The notes under the pieces were generated by a model that saw only the letters and a program-made list of their open reading frames with translations, made no database searches and was not told the DNA's origin. The translations under genes and the position numbers were made by a program. DNA of 35,858 bases from Clostridiales bacterium (GTDB lineage: Bacteria > Bacillota > Clostridia > Christensenellales > Aristaeellaceae). Location of the stretch: contig SVHD01000026.1 in assembly GCA_015056015.1 (NCBI GenBank), positions 1-35,858 on the forward strand, in the 5' to 3' direction. This document shows, in pieces, positions 17,858 through 22,416 of this stretch; position 1 is the stretch's first letter; each line of letters begins with the position of its first letter.

Positions 17858-18426
17858 CGCCAATGCTGATAGCAAAGGCCCACATAGCGGATTTCATCCT
17901 GATTATCAATCAGCACCTGGGCGCCCTGCTTGATGACGTTTCCCTTGCCATCCACCCGGGTATTCATGGTGGCCTTTTTGCCGCACCAGCACAGGGAACC
18001 GGGCACCTCCTGAATATCCTCCGCCAGGCGTAAAAGCGCTGCGGAGCCGGGGAAGAAATTGCCCATAAAATCGGTTTTCAGGCCGAAGCAGAAAATTTCC
18101 AGCTGATCGGACATATCCGCCATTTCCTGCACCTGCTCTTCGGTGAGGAACTGGGCCTCATCCACAAAAACATACTGGAAATCGGAATGGGCATGCTGCA
18201 CCGCCAGCCAATTGAGCTGCTCCTGCACGCTGTGGCCGTTTTCCAGAACGATTTCGGCCTCCGCCTGCAATCCCACCCGGGAATAGACGGTGTTCACCGA
18301 AATGCGGGTATCGATGGCGGGCTTGACCAGGGCCACTTTCAGCCCCAATTGCAGATAATTATACCGCTGCATCAGCAGCATGGCGGTTTTGCTGGAGCCC
18401 ATGACCCCATGATAAAAATGCAGCAT
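17836..18426 (-). CDS. tdk: Thymidine kinase
   Basis: 196 residues, standard for type II thymidine kinase. P-loop GVMGSSKTAML at residues 8-18, Walker B FVDEAQFLTEEQV near 89, and FGLKTDFMGNFF in the substrate region. Zinc-binding cysteines occur in CWCGKKATMNTR and near the C-terminal CYQHW, and a GQGAQVLIDN-like strand precedes the end. It phosphorylates thymidine for salvage of dTMP. Its ATG overlaps the recR stop by one base (TAATG). The last codons (EGKSHA, stop) coincide with one copy of the 22-bp direct repeat, so the tdk C-terminus contains a fossil of the rmuC ribosome binding site. Confidence 0.95.
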   Translation of the reverse strand: MLHFYHGVMGSSKTAMLLMQRYNYLQLGLKVALVKPAIDTRISVNTVYSRVGLQAEAEIVLENGHSVQEQLNWLAVQHAHSDFQYVFVDEAQFLTEEQVQEMADMSDQLEIFCFGLKTDFMGNFFPGSAALLRLAEDIQEVPGSLCWCGKKATMNTRVDGKGNVIKQGAQVLIDNQDEIRYVGLCYQHWREGKSHA

Positions 18427-19025
18427 TATAATTCGCGCCTGCCTTCCATTGCTTTTGCCAGGGTCACTTCATCCGCATATTCCAGATCGCTGCCCACCGG
18501 CACGCCGTGGGCGATACGGGTCACCTTCACGCCCATGGGCTTGATGAGCCGCGCCAGATAGGCGGCAGTGGCCTCGCCCTCAATATCCGGGTTGGTGGCC
18601 AGAATAATTTCGTTTACGGTTTCGGTGGAAAGGCGGGTGAGCAATTCCTTGATGCGGATATCCTCTGGCCCCACATGATCCATGGGGGAGAGGGTGCCGC
18701 CCAGCACATGATACAGGCCCTTGAAATCCCGCATGCGTTCCATGGCGGCCACATCCCGGGCATCCCGCACCACGCAAATTTGCCCCGTGTGCCGCTTTTC
18801 ATCGGCACAGATGGGGCAGTATTCCTCCTGGGTATAATTGCCGCAAAGGGCGCAGAAACGCAGGGCCTTCCTTCCCTGCCAGAGGGCGGCGGCCAATTCC
18901 TTTACCTGCTCCTGCGGCATGGCGGCAATATGATAGGCCAGGCGCTGGGCGCTTTTTTGTCCGATCCCCGGAAGCCTGGATAATTGCAGCGCCATCCGGG
19001 CGATGGGATCGCATCCTTCCTGCAT
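18426..19025 (-). CDS. recR: Recombination mediator RecR
   Basis: 199 residues, full length. An N-terminal helix-hairpin-helix (LSRLPGIGQKSAQRLAYHI) is followed by a C4 zinc finger (CALCGNY then CPICAD). The Toprim domain includes VVRDARDVAAMERM and ILATNPDIEGEATAAYLA, and the C-terminal part has RIAHGVPVGSDLEYADEVTLAKAMEGRR. It loads RecA on gapped DNA together with RecO, whose gene is 4.5 kb away at 23514. It lies between ybaB and tdk with one-base stop/start overlaps on both sides, indicating tight translational coupling. Confidence 0.97.
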   Translation of the reverse strand: MQEGCDPIARMALQLSRLPGIGQKSAQRLAYHIAAMPQEQVKELAAALWQGRKALRFCALCGNYTQEEYCPICADEKRHTGQICVVRDARDVAAMERMRDFKGLYHVLGGTLSPMDHVGPEDIRIKELLTRLSTETVNEIILATNPDIEGEATAAYLARLIKPMGVKVTRIAHGVPVGSDLEYADEVTLAKAMEGRREL

Positions 19026-19366
19026 CAGAACATCCCGCCCATGCCGGCAGGGGCCATTTTGCCCATGGTTTCTTCGCGGGTCTTTTCGCCTTCGCGCAGG
19101 GCTTCATTCACCGCGGCCATCACCAGATCCTGCAGCATTTCCACATCATCGGGATCCACGGCTTCGGGCTTGATGGTAAGCTCCAGCAGCTCCCGCTTGC
19201 CGGATACCTTGCAGGATACCATGCCGCCGCCGGCGGAAGCTTCGTATACCTTTTCATCCAGCTCTTCCTGGGCCTTCTGCATCTGTTCCTGCATCTTCTG
19301 CGCCTGACGCATCAGCTGCTGCATATTGGGCATACCGCCGCCGAAACCACCGAATTGACGAGCCAT
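19025..19366 (-). CDS. YbaB/EbfC family nucleoid-associated protein
   Basis: 113 residues. A flexible Gly-rich start ([17 protein letters not shown]) is followed by the long charged helix [19 protein letters not shown] and the strand region [22 protein letters not shown]. The closing helix [17 protein letters not shown] and a Gly/Met tail complete the YbaB fold. Dimers bind DNA with little specificity. The gene heads the ybaB-recR-tdk operon, a common gene order; dnaX, often just upstream of ybaB in other genomes, is absent here. Ribosome binding site AAGGAGGA. Confidence 0.95.
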
Positions 19367-19551: not shown

Positions 19552-20583
19552 ATGCAGCATCGCATTGTCACGCCCGGTTATCTTCACGATGAAAAGGGGC
19601 ATTTAATGGAGGCGGGCTATGCCACGAACCTTATCAAAACCTATGATCGTAAAAGAATTGCCGCCAATCCTTTGCGCATCAAGGAATGGGATTATTATCT
19701 GATTCAATCCGATCGCTATGCCCTGGCGCTTACCATTGCGGATAACGGCTATATGGGCCTGGACAGCGTATCGCTGCTGGATTTTGACGGTCCCTGGGAA
19801 AAGACCGTATCGAAAATGAGCATCCTGCCCCTGGGCAAAAGGAATCTGCCCCCCACCAGTGAAAAGGGAATCAGCAAATCCGCCGGGAAGGGATACGAGA
19901 TCGTTTTTGAAAATGACGGAAAAAAGCGCCGCCTCTACGGGCATATGGATGATTTCAAGGATGGCTCGCCCATTCTTTTTGACGTAACGCTGACCCAGGC
20001 GCCCCGGGATTCCATGGTGATCGTGACCCCCTTTGCGGATAAACCGAAGGCTTTCTATTATAATCAGAAGATCAATTGCCTCAGGGCGGAAGGCCGGGCG
20101 GAATGGAACGGGAATGAATATCTGTTTGCGCCCGCTCATTCTTTTGCCGTGCTGGATTGGGGCCGGGGCGTATGGACCTACGAAAATACCTGGTATTGGG
20201 GATCGGCATCCGGATTGGCGGAGGGAGTTCCCTTTGGCTTCAATATCGGCTATGGCTTTGGGGATACCAGCGCCGCCAGCGAAAATATGCTGTTCTATGA
20301 CGGCGTCGCCCATAAAATTTCTCAGGTGAAATTTGAAATTCCCATGAAAGATGGGCAGGAGGATTATCTCTCCCCCTGGCGCTTTACCAGCGATGACGGC
20401 CGGTTTGAAATGGATTTTATCCCCATCATCGATCGGGCCTCCTGCACGGATTTTAAGATCCTCTGCTCCGATCAGCATCAGGTTTTCGGCCGTTTTTCCG
20501 GCACGGTCATTCTGGATGACGGCACAAAAATTCCCATCAGGGATCTGCTGGGCTTTGCGGAAAAGGTGCGAAATAAATGGTAA
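19552..20583 (+). CDS. DUF2804 domain protein
   Basis: 343 residues, without signal peptide or membrane segments. The pattern of Trp-rich beta strands (IKEWDYYLIQSDRYALALTI, then FAVLDWGRGVWTYENTWYWG, then GFNIGYGFGDTSAASENM) is characteristic of DUF2804, whose two-lobed beta structure resembles lipocalin-like hydroxyneurosporene-synthase folds. No enzymatic role is established for the family. The gene is monocistronic, with a near-consensus promoter and a ribosome binding site in AAAGGGGG. No terminator follows before the promoter at 20635. Confidence 0.85.
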   Translation: MQHRIVTPGYLHDEKGHLMEAGYATNLIKTYDRKRIAANPLRIKEWDYYLIQSDRYALALTIADNGYMGLDSVSLLDFDGPWEKTVSKMSILPLGKRNLPPTSEKGISKSAGKGYEIVFENDGKKRRLYGHMDDFKDGSPILFDVTLTQAPRDSMVIVTPFADKPKAFYYNQKINCLRAEGRAEWNGNEYLFAPAHSFAVLDWGRGVWTYENTWYWGSASGLAEGVPFGFNIGYGFGDTSAASENMLFYDGVAHKISQVKFEIPMKDGQEDYLSPWRFTSDDGRFEMDFIPIIDRASCTDFKILCSDQHQVFGRFSGTVILDDGTKIPIRDLLGFAEKVRNKW

Positions 20584-20634
20584 AATAATCGCCAGAAAAA
20601 ATAAAAATTTTTTCAAAAATGGCGTAAATGGCTA

Positions 20635-20663
20635 TTGACAAACCTGTAATGCCATGCTATACT
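20635..20663 (+). promoter_or_regulatory. Strong sigma-A promoter of the large noncoding RNA
   Basis: TTGACA (20635-20640), exactly 17 bases, TATACT (20658-20663). Predicted transcription start is 20669-20671, precisely at the first base of the long-range closing helix of the RNA. Confidence 0.9.
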
Positions 20664-20669
20664 AAAGCC

Positions 20670-21471
20670 AGATAAGGGCCCTGTCAAAACAAAAAGAGCG
20701 AAAACGACCGACAAAAAACAAACCGGAAAAGCAAACCAACCAAGAAAAGAAGGAACCAGTACCCCCGTTGTTTCCCAATGAATGGGAAGGAAAACAAGGA
20801 GGAGATTCCGATGGTGAGCGAATGCTGAAGAACCGTTCTTTACGGGCTCGGTTCTCGTCGATCATTTCTTGCATCGCCGGATAAAATGCATGAAAGCCGG
20901 AAACGGGAAGAGGCCATGACTTGGCCAGCGGAAACCGGAATGCAAAAAATGCCCAAATAAAGCCTGTAGAAAAAAAGAAACCGAGAAAACTGAAAAACGT
21001 AAAATCATTGAAGAGAAAAGAGAAGCACGAAGAAAATTTTCCGATTTTCAGCGCCTAAGAGAAGCGAGAAAAAAGAAAAAACTCCTGGCTGACTGGATCA
21101 ACGGAAGAAAAATTTCTGATAATCCCGGTGCGGATCGAAAAAATATGCCGATAATTCGATTCAAAAATTTCTGAAATTCATGCGAGGAAATCCGGAATAA
21201 ACCTTGTTTCAAACGGATTGAGAAGAAAAGGAACCAGGAATCGAAGAAAGGCACATCACGAGCAGGGCAAGCCGAAAGCCCGATCAATCAACGCACGGGA
21301 GAAACGCCGATGATGGGAATGTGGGCCGATGATCGGCGAAAGGGATGAAACGCTTCCAAAGGCGCTTTCTGAATAACCCCGGTGTTTCTATCAAAAATCA
21401 TTCCTCTTCAATTTGTGGGTCAAAAACTTATCATCAGGAGGGGCAGCAAGGCAAGGCTGCCCCTCATTTTT
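20670..21471 (+). ncRNA. Large structured noncoding RNA, about 800 nt, class not identified
   Basis: No frame over 20670-21471 encodes a plausible protein. The 5' end GATAAG-GGCCC (20671-20681) pairs with GGGTC-(A)5-CTTATC (21417-21432), closing the whole molecule. Inside are many local helices: GGAA, TTGTT and TCCCA stacked with TGGGA, AACAA and TTCC (20752-20809); AGAACCG/CGGTTCT (20829-20855); TGCAT/ATGCA (20870-20890); CCG-GAAA-CGG with a GNRA loop (20897-20906); GGCCA/TGGCC (20912-20926); ATCGAA/TTCGAT (21134-21160); AATCCG/CGGATT enclosing AAAC/GTTT (21189-21219); GGGC/GCCC (21265-21281); GCCGA/TCGGC (21325-21337). Unpaired parts are strikingly A-rich. Size and build resemble the OLE, GOLLD and ROOL classes, but I cannot match it to any. 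Confidence 0.82.
21438..21471 (+). terminator. Intrinsic terminator of the large noncoding RNA
   Basis: GAGGGGCAGC (21438-21447), loop AAGGCAAG, GCTGCCCCTC (21456-21465), then A and five T. It sits five bases after the closing helix and separates the RNA from the AraC gene. Confidence 0.92.
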
Positions 21472-21540: not shown

Positions 21541-21546
21541 AAGGGA

Positions 21547-22416
21547 ATGGATATGATTCGGGCGCTGAATGCGGCGATTCGGTATATGGAGGATAACCTG
21601 GGCGGGGAATTGGATCTGGAGCAGGCGGCGAAAATTGCCTGCGTGAATCCGGATAGCTTCCAGCGCTTTTTCAGCTATATCACCGGTATGTCCCTGGGGG
21701 AATATGTCCGTGCCCGGCGGCTGAGCCTGGCGGCCATGGATTTGCGGGCGGGGGAGGAGGCCATTGTGGATCTGGCGGTGAAATATGGCTATGAGAGCGC
21801 AGCGGCCTTTTCCCGGGCTTTTTTCCGGCAGCATGGCATTCGTCCTTCGGATTACCGCCGCCGCGGCGGTGCGATTCAATTATATCCCCCTGTTTCCTTT
21901 CAAATTCAGGTAAAGGGGGCAAAGAAAATGAATTTCAGAATGGTGGAAATGAAGGAAACGCAGCTCTGGGGCATTTCCCGGGCCTACGATGCGCAGGAAA
22001 AGGAATGCCCGGAAATGATCCGCCACCGGCTCTGGGCAGAGGAAGAGGAAAATATTCCCGGGCAGCTTTGCGAGGGGGCCTGGAATCAGCCGGGAAGCAC
22101 GGCCTATGACGGGCTTTGGTATGGCGTCTGGAAAAACGGCCGGTATATGATCGCCCGGGATGCGGAAAAGGAAGGATTGGAAAAAATCATCCTGCCCGCA
22201 GGCGCCTATGCCGCTTTTCAAACGGAAAAAGGCGGCCTGGCCTGGGAGGAATTCCCCCGGCTGTTTGAATTGATCTTTGATTGCTGGCTGCCTACATCCG
22301 GCTATCGGCAAAAGGGTGATTGGATCGTGGAAATTTCCCATCTCTGGACCGATCACGAAGCCCGGAAAAAGAACCGGTATTATGAGGTGTGGGTACCGGT
22401 GGAAAAAAGGGAATGA
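21547..22416 (+). CDS. AraC-family regulator with GyrI-like effector-binding domain (Rob/SoxS-like architecture)
   Basis: 289 residues. An N-terminal double helix-turn-helix (about 5-110: NAAIRYMEDNLGGELDLEQA, then VDLAVKYGYESAAAFSRAFFRQHGIRPSDYRR) is followed by a C-terminal ligand-binding domain (about 128-285). That domain starts NFRMVEMKETQLWGISRAYD and ends YYEVWVPVEK, typical of GyrI/AraE_rpl-like effector domains. This order matches Rob-type regulators that sense small hydrophobic compounds and control efflux or stress genes. The ORF is open further upstream into the noncoding RNA terminator, but GGAGGTG fixes the start at 21547. A target gene is not evident nearby. Confidence 0.9.
   Translation: MDMIRALNAAIRYMEDNLGGELDLEQAAKIACVNPDSFQRFFSYITGMSLGEYVRARRLSLAAMDLRAGEEAIVDLAVKYGYESAAAFSRAFFRQHGIRPSDYRRRGGAIQLYPPVSFQIQVKGAKKMNFRMVEMKETQLWGISRAYDAQEKECPEMIRHRLWAEEEENIPGQLCEGAWNQPGSTAYDGLWYGVWKNGRYMIARDAEKEGLEKIILPAGAYAAFQTEKGGLAWEEFPRLFELIFDCWLPTSGYRQKGDWIVEISHLWTDHEARKKNRYYEVWVPVEKRE

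What the first reader, a model, noticed from the sequence alone, without database searches (positions are those of the whole stretch)
20635..21471. Candidate new large structured noncoding RNA of about 800 nt
The sequence shows a near-perfect promoter (TTGACA-17-TATACT). Its predicted start coincides with GATAAG-GGCCC, which pairs with GGGTC-(A)5-CTTATC about 750 bases later; a 10-bp terminator follows five bases after that closing helix. Between them are at least nine local helices, a GAAA tetraloop, A-rich linkers and no credible ORF. Long bacterial RNAs of this build (OLE, GOLLD, ROOL) are few and form elaborate particles. I could not match this one to any of them by eye, so it is either a divergent member or a new class.
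Basis: partly seen in the sequence, partly recalled or inferred. Interest (0 to 1): 0.88.

Follow-up and report, generated by a model that had tools for sequence, protein, structure and literature searches.

The report
New large RNA in rumen bacteria
This stretch is one of the most divergent copies of a previously uncatalogued, strongly promoted, 440-880-base structured RNA of uncultured, mostly rumen-derived Clostridia, whose best-preserved part is a ribosome landing site in front of a tiny reading frame with a changing peptide, which suggests that being translated, rather than the peptide made, is what matters.

Summary
The candidate is real. Window 20664-21471 is a free-standing transcription unit (TTGACA-17-TATACT promoter, strong terminator) without an Rfam match. 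Nucleotide search finds no relative, but synteny (recR/ybaB/DUF2804), a motif and covariance models give 23 members: 22 of 29 genomes of the genus plus one in a sister genus. Two cousins in a third genus share the design. An exact signature pattern hits 18 loci among about 85,000 species genomes, all already members, all Clostridia, 8 naming a ruminant host. Helix P1 (11 pairs) covaries: 5 pairs change on both sides. The genome has separate 6S and raiA RNAs. The best-conserved element is AAGGAGGnGAnUCCCAUGG, a Shine-Dalgarno plus AUG. It opens a mini-ORF of 17-26 codons in 22 of 23 members; the other frames scatter widely. Aligned start and stop changes give other starts and stops; the peptide is not conserved within the genus. 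P1's 5' strand lies in the mini-ORF, 18-22 bases after the AUG. Best model (inferred): a large RNA whose stability or fold is gated by ribosomes on a disposable mini-ORF. The window copy is divergent: P1 is only a candidate, its mini-ORF has 5 codons. New RNA class: confident. Mechanism: tentative.

The parts
20588..20634 (+). A/T-rich upstream region (UP-element-like); relatives have A/T-rich near-palindromes here
   Evidence: 48 bases before the -35 are 58-83% A+T in 22 members, 73% here
20635..20663 (+). sigma-70-type promoter TTGACA-17-TATACT
   Evidence: a TAnnnT hexamer stands at the same distance from TTGAC in 22 of 22 members and in G001
20664..21471 (+). large structured RNA gene; transcript about 800 nt, start near 20670 inferred from the promoter
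20671..20676 (+). 5' strand GATAAG of a predicted closing helix; alternatively part of a weak local hairpin
   Evidence: pairs with 21427-21432, probability 0.97; not shared by most relatives
20796..20814 (+). conserved Shine-Dalgarno/start module AAGGAGGAGATTCCGATGG
   Evidence: 2 differences from GGAGGAGAGTCCCATGG of relatives; best R1 and R2 match in the window
20811..20828 (+). mini-ORF after the module, 5 codons (MVSEC); 17-26 codons in the other 22 members
20822..20884 (+). alternative mini-ORF of 20 codons from a second ATG, of family-like length but too far from the strong Shine-Dalgarno; post hoc
   Evidence: letters; its frame ends at 20884
20839..20970 (+). candidate equivalent of helix P1: 20839-20848 with 20961-20970; tentative
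   Evidence: 10 pairs, mean probability 0.66; begins at +18 of the ATG at 20822, as P1 does in relatives; post hoc
21007..21412 (+). long nested arm: 21007-21015/21404-21412, 21021-21028/21382-21389, 21050-21056/21360-21366, 21061-21066/21351-21356
   Evidence: pair probabilities 0.91-0.95; z -2.8, 0 of 100 shuffles as stable
21427..21432 (+). 3' strand CTTATC of the predicted closing helix
21438..21471 (+). intrinsic terminator
   Evidence: 10-pair stem then ATTTTT

Best explanation
A new class of large, probably abundant, structured RNA of rumen Clostridia, made from its own strong promoter to its own terminator and acting in trans or as a particle rather than as a leader of a neighbour (shown by sequence: promoters, terminators, changing neighbours, covarying P1; inferred: abundance). 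Near its 5' end a consensus Shine-Dalgarno/AUG module loads ribosomes onto a mini-ORF of 17-26 codons whose start, stop and length look selected but whose peptide is not (comparison; translation itself inferred). Because P1's 5' strand lies inside the mini-ORF, starting 18-22 bases after the AUG, just beyond an initiating ribosome's footprint, ribosome traffic and P1 cannot coexist. I infer that ribosomes on the mini-ORF gate the RNA: they shield its 5' side from decay (as RBS-dependent stabilisers do in Bacillus) and hold P1 open, and when initiation falls, P1 closes and the RNA adopts its other fold. Early termination spares the structured 3' body. What the body then does is unknown. The window carries one of the most divergent copies, possibly partly relaxed.
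For: Family: synteny, module search, R1/R2 searches, check of weak hits. P1: 5 of 11 pairs changed on both sides; all helices together 33 such cells against 11.1 +/- 2.9 in shuffles, 0 of 500 as high, at most 4 when slid; 17 against 6.5 +/- 2.1 on the unfitted alignment. Mini-ORF 17-26 codons in 21 of 22, s.d. 4.4 against 18.8 and 25.2 in the other frames; mean chance per shuffled sequence 0.17; 23 codons in the later-found G001. Stop swaps TGA/TAA in two g1 groups and in cousin ORF 3; start swaps ATG/TTG and GTG/TTG in the cousins. Nonsynonymous differences dominate in the g1 groups. A shared ACAATTGAATAT box lies in different frames in groups A and B (letters in 30 and 37, frames read by hand). 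P1 at +18/+19 in 19 of 21, +22 in one. RBS-dependent protection of long untranslated RNA is established in Bacillus (PMC3997798, passages).
Against: No expression, translation or structure data exist here. Predicted folds do not show the Shine-Dalgarno as specially open: mean unpaired 0.42 against 0.50 overall, 21 members. The window copy has a 5-codon mini-ORF and no certain P1. In the cousins the stop positions of ORFs 2 and 4 are not kept (4 against 3 and 21 against 12 codons), and ORF 1 shows 8 nonsynonymous and no synonymous change (88). On the unfitted alignments the number of covarying pairs and of pair types is not exceptional (76 and 430 of 500 shuffles as high; 78 and 335 of 500); only the cell counts and scores are. 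The module's own 3-pair hairpin never varies in 20 rows (69), so is untested, and G026's letters break one pair. Swap events are few, sequences are related, and the start swaps come from one genome pair. ORF length was used loosely in selection: long ORFs after the module were dropped (11 of 23 exact-pattern loci), though the narrow range was not used. Seven genus genomes gave no convincing hit.
Confidence: 0.4

Rival explanations
1. A structural ribonucleoprotein or RNA-only particle (like OLE, ROOL or GOLLD) in which the Shine-Dalgarno-like box is only a 5' stabiliser or a tertiary-contact motif, and the mini-ORF is incidental.
For: Large size, many helices, A-rich linkers, independent transcription; OLE, ROOL and GOLLD form homo-oligomers (PMC12286853, passages). 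The GGA/UCC letters of the module are invariant in 20 of 20 aligned members.
Against: Start/stop swaps and the narrow mini-ORF length are hard to explain without translation. No Rfam match, no tRNA in the window, signature pattern in no viral contig.
Confidence: 0.25
2. A dual-function RNA or small mRNA whose 12-26-residue peptide is the product.
For: SD/AUG in 22 of 22 members tested; in genus g40, ORF 3 keeps 8 of 12 residues with 3 synonymous and 3 nonsynonymous codon changes; four mini-ORFs in the cousin RNA.
Against: In genus g1 peptides differ between groups, differences are mostly nonsynonymous without clear third-position excess (variable columns by codon position 4/5/7 and 4/9/7), and a 1-base shift between groups changes the frame. 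Several hundred bases of RNA follow the stop.
Confidence: 0.13
3. A trans-acting base-pairing regulator or protein sponge (for example of CsrA).
For: Purine-rich, many GGA, independent gene; weak RsmY-like score on one member (22.6 bits, gathering 57); AGGA slightly high (mean z 1.1).
Against: GGA and ANGGA are not clearly enriched over dinucleotide shuffles (mean z 0.8 and 0.6 over 21 members). Presence of csrA was not tested.
Confidence: 0.12
4. The window copy itself is a decaying remnant of the family, still transcribed.
For: Weak model score (12.4 bits, E 0.087 in its genome), 5-codon mini-ORF, no certain P1, whole-RNA z only -1.1.
Against: Promoter, leader, module, terminator and neighbourhood retained; its long arm folds better than 100 of 100 shuffles; another long, divergent member exists in G001.
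Confidence: 0.3

Closest known systems
ROOL (Rumen-Originating, Ornate, Large RNA)
   Same: Large, A-rich linkers (recalled), named for the rumen, independent transcript, unknown function.
   Different: No Rfam match; no viral contig holds the family's signature pattern; no tRNA in the window; carries an SD/AUG mini-ORF module.
OLE and GOLLD RNAs
   Same: Size class and free-standing structured RNA.
   Different: No Rfam match in any scanned member; GOLLD sits in phages and prophages (PMC12286853, passages); narrow distribution here.
raiA motif RNA (ModT) and 6S RNA
   Same: Structured, free-standing RNAs of Clostridia.
   Different: Both are present separately in the same genome (G000:C16 and G000:C82).
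RBS-dependent 5' stabilisers (STAB-SD, aprE leader; mini-ORF RBS protecting a T3SS mRNA)
   Same: A strong ribosome-binding site near the 5' end followed by long RNA; works like this in my model.
   Different: Those belong to mRNAs of proteins; here no protein follows, and length, start and stop of the mini-ORF look selected. Known here from passages and reference titles only.
Leader-peptide attenuators and uORFs
   Same: A short ORF whose translation competes with an RNA helix.
   Different: No gene appears to be controlled in cis: neighbours vary, some lie on the other strand, and a terminator ends the unit.

Membership tests
ROOL / GOLLD / OLE / HEARO (Rfam classes) | covariance-model score at or above the gathering threshold | tested here: not met
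   No gathering hit in the window; nothing credible up to E 5 in the locus, nor in the loci of the other 22 members and two cousins up to E 1-2
ROOL / GOLLD | location in phages or prophages, often near tRNA islands (PMC12286853, passages) | tested here: not met
   No tRNA in the window (other loci not scanned); the exact signature pattern hits 0 viral contigs
ROOL / GOLLD / OLE | homo-oligomeric particle | not testable with these tools
   needs cryo-EM or native gels
6S RNA | RF00013 score | tested here: not met
   locus does not match; a separate 6S matches in 23 of 29 genus genomes (22 over the cut-off) including G000
raiA motif RNA | RF03072 score | tested here: not met
   locus does not match; a separate raiA is over the cut-off in 26 of 29 genomes including G000
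tmRNA | tRNA-like domain and tag frame | tested here: not met
   ARAGORN finds no tRNA or tmRNA in the window; no Rfam tmRNA match there
CsrB/RsmY-type sponge | GGA motifs in excess | tested here: not met
   mean z 0.8 for GGA over 21 members
cis leader / riboswitch / attenuator | always upstream of a co-oriented gene | tested here: not met
   neighbours differ between lineages; in G025, G004, G028 and G017 the longest ORF within 1.5 kb downstream is on the other strand and reads like a real protein (identity by reading, not by search)
functional small protein gene | conserved peptide, excess of synonymous change | tested here: inconclusive
   not seen in genus g1 groups; hint in g40 ORF 3, not in ORF 1
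RBS-dependent 5' stabiliser | ribosome binding raises transcript half-life | not testable with these tools
   needs decay measurements

The most novel reading that the evidence does not exclude
A class of RNA that must be translated but not for its peptide: a large structured RNA whose activity is switched by ribosomes cycling on a disposable, length-constrained mini-ORF that overlaps its main helix, so that the free-standing RNA reports translation-initiation capacity in rumen Clostridia. Some carry two (G001) or four (genus g40) such ribosome-landing modules in one RNA.
Probability: 0.3. Interest if true: 0.87.

Novelty: new variant of a known kind. Interest (0 to 1): 0.72.

Why it matters
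Large structured bacterial RNAs are few, and several have no known function. This one adds a class confined, as far as searched, to one family of Clostridia with mostly rumen sources, and it comes with a testable handle: a ribosome-landing module whose mini-ORF length, start and stop, but not peptide, look selected. If the model holds, it is a free-standing RNA controlled by being translated.

Tried and rejected
Direct nucleotide search with the window RNA in 60 relatives: only itself over its length; the other six matches were scraps of 23-45 bases. The one in its own genome (G000:C59, L006) covers only the -10 and leader, before an HTH-like gene.

Coding reading: four frames over the locus have no Pfam hit.

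CsrA-sponge idea: not supported, no clear GGA excess. Sequestering of the Shine-Dalgarno by a 3' CCUCUCC box: such boxes lie 44-49 bases before the 3' GGGU in 10 of 21 members, but complementarity is not above shuffles.

Weak model hits inspected and dropped: L082 (G002), L094 (G268), L095 (G279), L127 (G255), and, by a long ORF after the module, L098 (G079), L099 (G111), L096 (G300), L100/L129 (G301), L102 (G171), L123 (G620, 93 aa), L083, L084, L086; L085 (G012) has no promoter and a long frame through it. L088-L091 (G008, G018, G024, G022) showed no module. L087 (G001) turned out to be a member. The 1-mismatch places without a locus were not inspected. The double-module pattern hits 3 viral contigs, all repetitive sequence that reads as coding.

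Long-range helix P3 (ACCC-GGAUCA with UGAUCC-...-GGGU): 2 of 6 pairs of its GGAUCA part change on both sides, but segments were chosen by hand and the window's own fold uses those bases otherwise, so it stays a suggestion. One search read minus-strand loci on the wrong strand and was redone. The first alignment of the two g40 cousins used the wrong locus slice and was redone.

Full report
What was checked. The promoter (TTGACA-17-TATACT, 11 of 12), the terminator and the GATAAG/CTTATC pairing exist at the stated places. Rfam gives no gathering hit in the window and nothing credible up to E 5 in the locus. The flanks are ordinary: DUF2804 upstream (19552-20583) and an AraC/GyrI-like gene downstream (21541-22416). 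Single-sequence folding is only marginally better than shuffled (z -1.9 with 20 shuffles; -1.1 with 100), apart from the long arm 21004-21412 (z -2.8, 0 of 100). So the case had to be made by comparison.

Finding relatives. A nucleotide search in 60 relatives found only the window itself over its length. DUF2804 occurs in 21 of 29 genomes of the genus. Of the 20 other loci whose gene end was reached, three (G019, G015, G023) carry a similar strong promoter and an A-rich noncoding stretch behind it. They share GGAGGAGAGTCCCATGG, which the window has as GGAGGAGATTCCGATGG. A pattern search gave 23 loci with an exact match; 12 were kept and 11 dropped because a protein gene follows (some cut by contig ends). 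G019 and G023 came by synteny and G010 by position. Covariance models R1 (14 members) and R2 (20 members) added G005, G028, G017, G013, G009, G189 and G026. A late check of weak hits added G001 (R1 E 0.0034; promoter, module, 23-codon mini-ORF, terminator, 879 nt). That makes 23 members: 22 of 29 genus genomes and G189 of a sister genus (g34). G002, G008, G012, G016, G018, G022 and G024 gave no convincing hit; several are incomplete and divergent copies would be missed. Counts below that name 20, 21 or 22 members were made before the last were found. In 396 genomes of the order only one further place reached E 1e-4 (G620); a 93-aa ORF follows it.

Who has it. An exact gapped pattern of module plus P1 strand hits 18 stretches in a collection described as 84,980 species genomes. 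Titles say Clostridia, Clostridiales or (one) Christensenellaceae. Eight of 18 name red deer, roe deer, goat, sheep or water buffalo; seven are RUG isolates (rumen genomes, recalled); three name no host. The same pattern hits no viral contig.

Does the window copy belong? Its model score is weak: best match in the window at 20783-20888, 12.4 bits, E 0.0011 for the window and 0.087 for its genome. Independent evidence is positional and structural. recR and ybaB homologues lie in the RNA's locus in 3 of 14 loci searched (G015 L106, G009 L081, G026 L126); the window has recR at 18426-19025 and YbaB at 19025-19366 (PF02575). The promoter has the same spacing and the leader starts AAAGCCAGATAAGG, as most group-A members have ATAGCCAGATAGGA. 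The module sits 134 bases after the -10 (69-103 in 21 others; 79 in G001) and a terminator ends the unit. I judge it a true but very divergent member. G001, whose RNA is similarly long (879 nt), matches the others only locally.

Common architecture. (1) TTGAC(A/T) with TAnnnT at the same distance in 22 of 22 (the script located TTGAC; the -10 offset was fixed); the 48 bases before it are 58-83% A+T, often near-palindromes such as TGGAAAAAAATTTCC or TTGATAAATTTATCAA. (2) The Shine-Dalgarno/AUG module. (3) Helix P1: in the model-fitted alignment of 20 members 5 of its 11 pairs change on both sides; all helices together give 33 such cells against 11.1 +/- 2.9 in shuffles, 0 of 500 as high, and at most 4 in slid controls. 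In the unfitted MAFFT alignment of 14 it is 17 against 6.5 +/- 2.1, 0 of 500; there the number of covarying pairs (76 of 500 as high) and of pair types (430 of 500) is not exceptional. (4) A conserved AAGGCUU...AAGC hairpin, 2 of 4 pairs changing on both sides in the fitted alignment, none in the unfitted one. (5) A suggested long-range helix P3 near the 3' end (hand-cut segments). (6) An intrinsic terminator: the script reports a stem with a T-rich tail for all 22, but for G015 that stem lies in what reads like an inserted element (letters), so I count 21 of 22. Lengths from the -10 to the stem end are about 440-570 nt in the others (for G004, G014 and G015 the script picked a later stem), about 800 nt in the window and 879 in G001. 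The whole-RNA folding z averages -1.4 over 21 members, 20 of 21 negative.

The mini-ORF. After the module's AUG the frame stays open for 17-26 codons in 21 of 22 members (window: 5), s.d. 4.4. The other two frames have s.d. 18.8 and 25.2. Shuffled sequences fall in 17-26 with mean probability 0.17. G001, found later, has 23 (other frames 0 and 6). Members are related, and loci leading into long ORFs had been dropped, so this is strong but not a formal P value. Groups differ in frame: P1 starts at +18 of the AUG in G019, G015, G027 and G013, at +19 in 15 members, at +22 in G009, and was not found in the window (21 members). So different peptides arise with similar length. Stops swap TGA/TAA in two g1 groups; pairwise codon differences are mostly nonsynonymous (17 against 6, and 40 against 6). 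A box ACAATTGAATAT is shared by groups A and B in different frames (letters; frames read by hand). So initiation, termination and length look selected, the peptide not.

Cousins. R2 pointed to G110 of genus g40 (E 1.8e-5). L128 has a promoter, a CCGACCGACC leader (also in several g1 leaders, letters) and a terminator 1,324 bases after the -10. It holds four modules with starts ATG, GTG, ATG, TTG and ORFs of 12, 4, 12 and 21 codons; the fourth has a weaker Shine-Dalgarno. G067 of the same genus has a 941-base unit with starts ATG, TTG, TTG and ORFs of 12, 3 and 12 codons, and a fourth of 12 codons from TTG. ORF 3 keeps 8 of 12 residues and swaps both start (ATG/TTG) and stop (TAA/TGA) for legal codons; ORF 1 keeps its length but changes 8 codons nonsynonymously. 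Against the rule, ORFs 2 and 4 do not keep their stop position. Double modules in this exact form occur in 2 of 308 family genomes, these two. G001's RNA has a looser second module with a 2-codon ORF, and the stretch around it resembles G009's leader (74% over 66 bases). That the g40 RNAs are homologous to the g1 family rests on shared design and module, not on overall alignment.

What it is not. 6S (23 of 29 genomes, G000:C82) and raiA RNA (26 of 29, G000:C16) are separate in the same genome. Rfam scans of the loci of the other 22 members and both cousins gave no score near gathering; the listed hits lie outside the RNAs by my reckoning, except RsmY (22.6 bits, gathering 57) in G010's RNA and BSnc120 (24.3, gathering 114) at the terminator of L128. 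GGA is not clearly enriched. It is not a cis leader: neighbours vary and in several loci lie on the other strand.

How it may work. P1's 5' strand begins 18-22 bases after the A of AUG (G026 has +22 by its letters). An initiating ribosome reaches to about +15 (general knowledge), so P1 would abut it and be opened by elongation. In Bacillus, a 5' hairpin or a ribosome-binding site can stabilise long downstream RNA, notably when it is not translated (PMC3997798, passages; reference titles there include STAB-SD, the aprE leader and a mini-ORF RBS protecting a T3SS mRNA). Together these give the ribosome-gated model above. Translation, stabilisation and switching are all inferred, and predicted folds do not show the Shine-Dalgarno as especially open.

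In print. I searched the held library six times: 3 papers; 14; 2; 0: Christensenellales, noncoding RNA, rumen; 8; 36, 12 listed. I read passages of PMC12286853, PMC6429828, PMC3997798 and PMC11109978; the rest I saw as listings. Nothing seen describes this RNA; other literature was not searched.

Rechecking added G001, which raises members from 22 to 23 and lowers the genomes without a hit from eight to seven.

Noticed in passing
L128 (G110:C47, minus strand) 585-1935 and L131 (G067:C10): About 0.95-1.3-kb RNA-like units in genus g40 with four Shine-Dalgarno/start modules (mostly GGAGGnGATTCCC + ATG/GTG/TTG), each with a 3-21-codon ORF, and a CCGACCGACC-repeat leader.
   Followed up: partly
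L087 (G001:C76, minus strand): Long member (879 nt) with a second, looser module followed by a 2-codon ORF, and a predicted 5'-3' pairing like the window's but with other letters.
   Followed up: partly
G000:C59:72109-72147 (L006 1501-1539): The start of the window RNA (-10 plus leader) recurs at 85% identity over 38 query bases in the leader of an HTH-like gene in the same genome; possibly a shared operator or 5' stabilising hairpin.
   Followed up: partly
48 bases upstream of the promoter in the members: Near-palindromes: TTGATAAATTTATCAA-like in group A, TGGAAAnnnTTTCC-like in most others; they may be operators rather than mere UP elements.
   Followed up: no
L017/L039 (G015:C33), just after the RNA: The G015 RNA seems to lack its own terminator: what reads like an insertion element follows the conserved 3' tail directly.
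   Followed up: no
L052 2636-2768 and L076 1198-1311: Long inverted repeats (about 110-130 bases) that score against unrelated microRNA models.
   Followed up: no
L061 944-1112 (RNA of G010): Sub-threshold RsmY-like score (22.6 bits, gathering 57) in the 3' part of one member; GGA is not clearly enriched in the family.
   Followed up: yes
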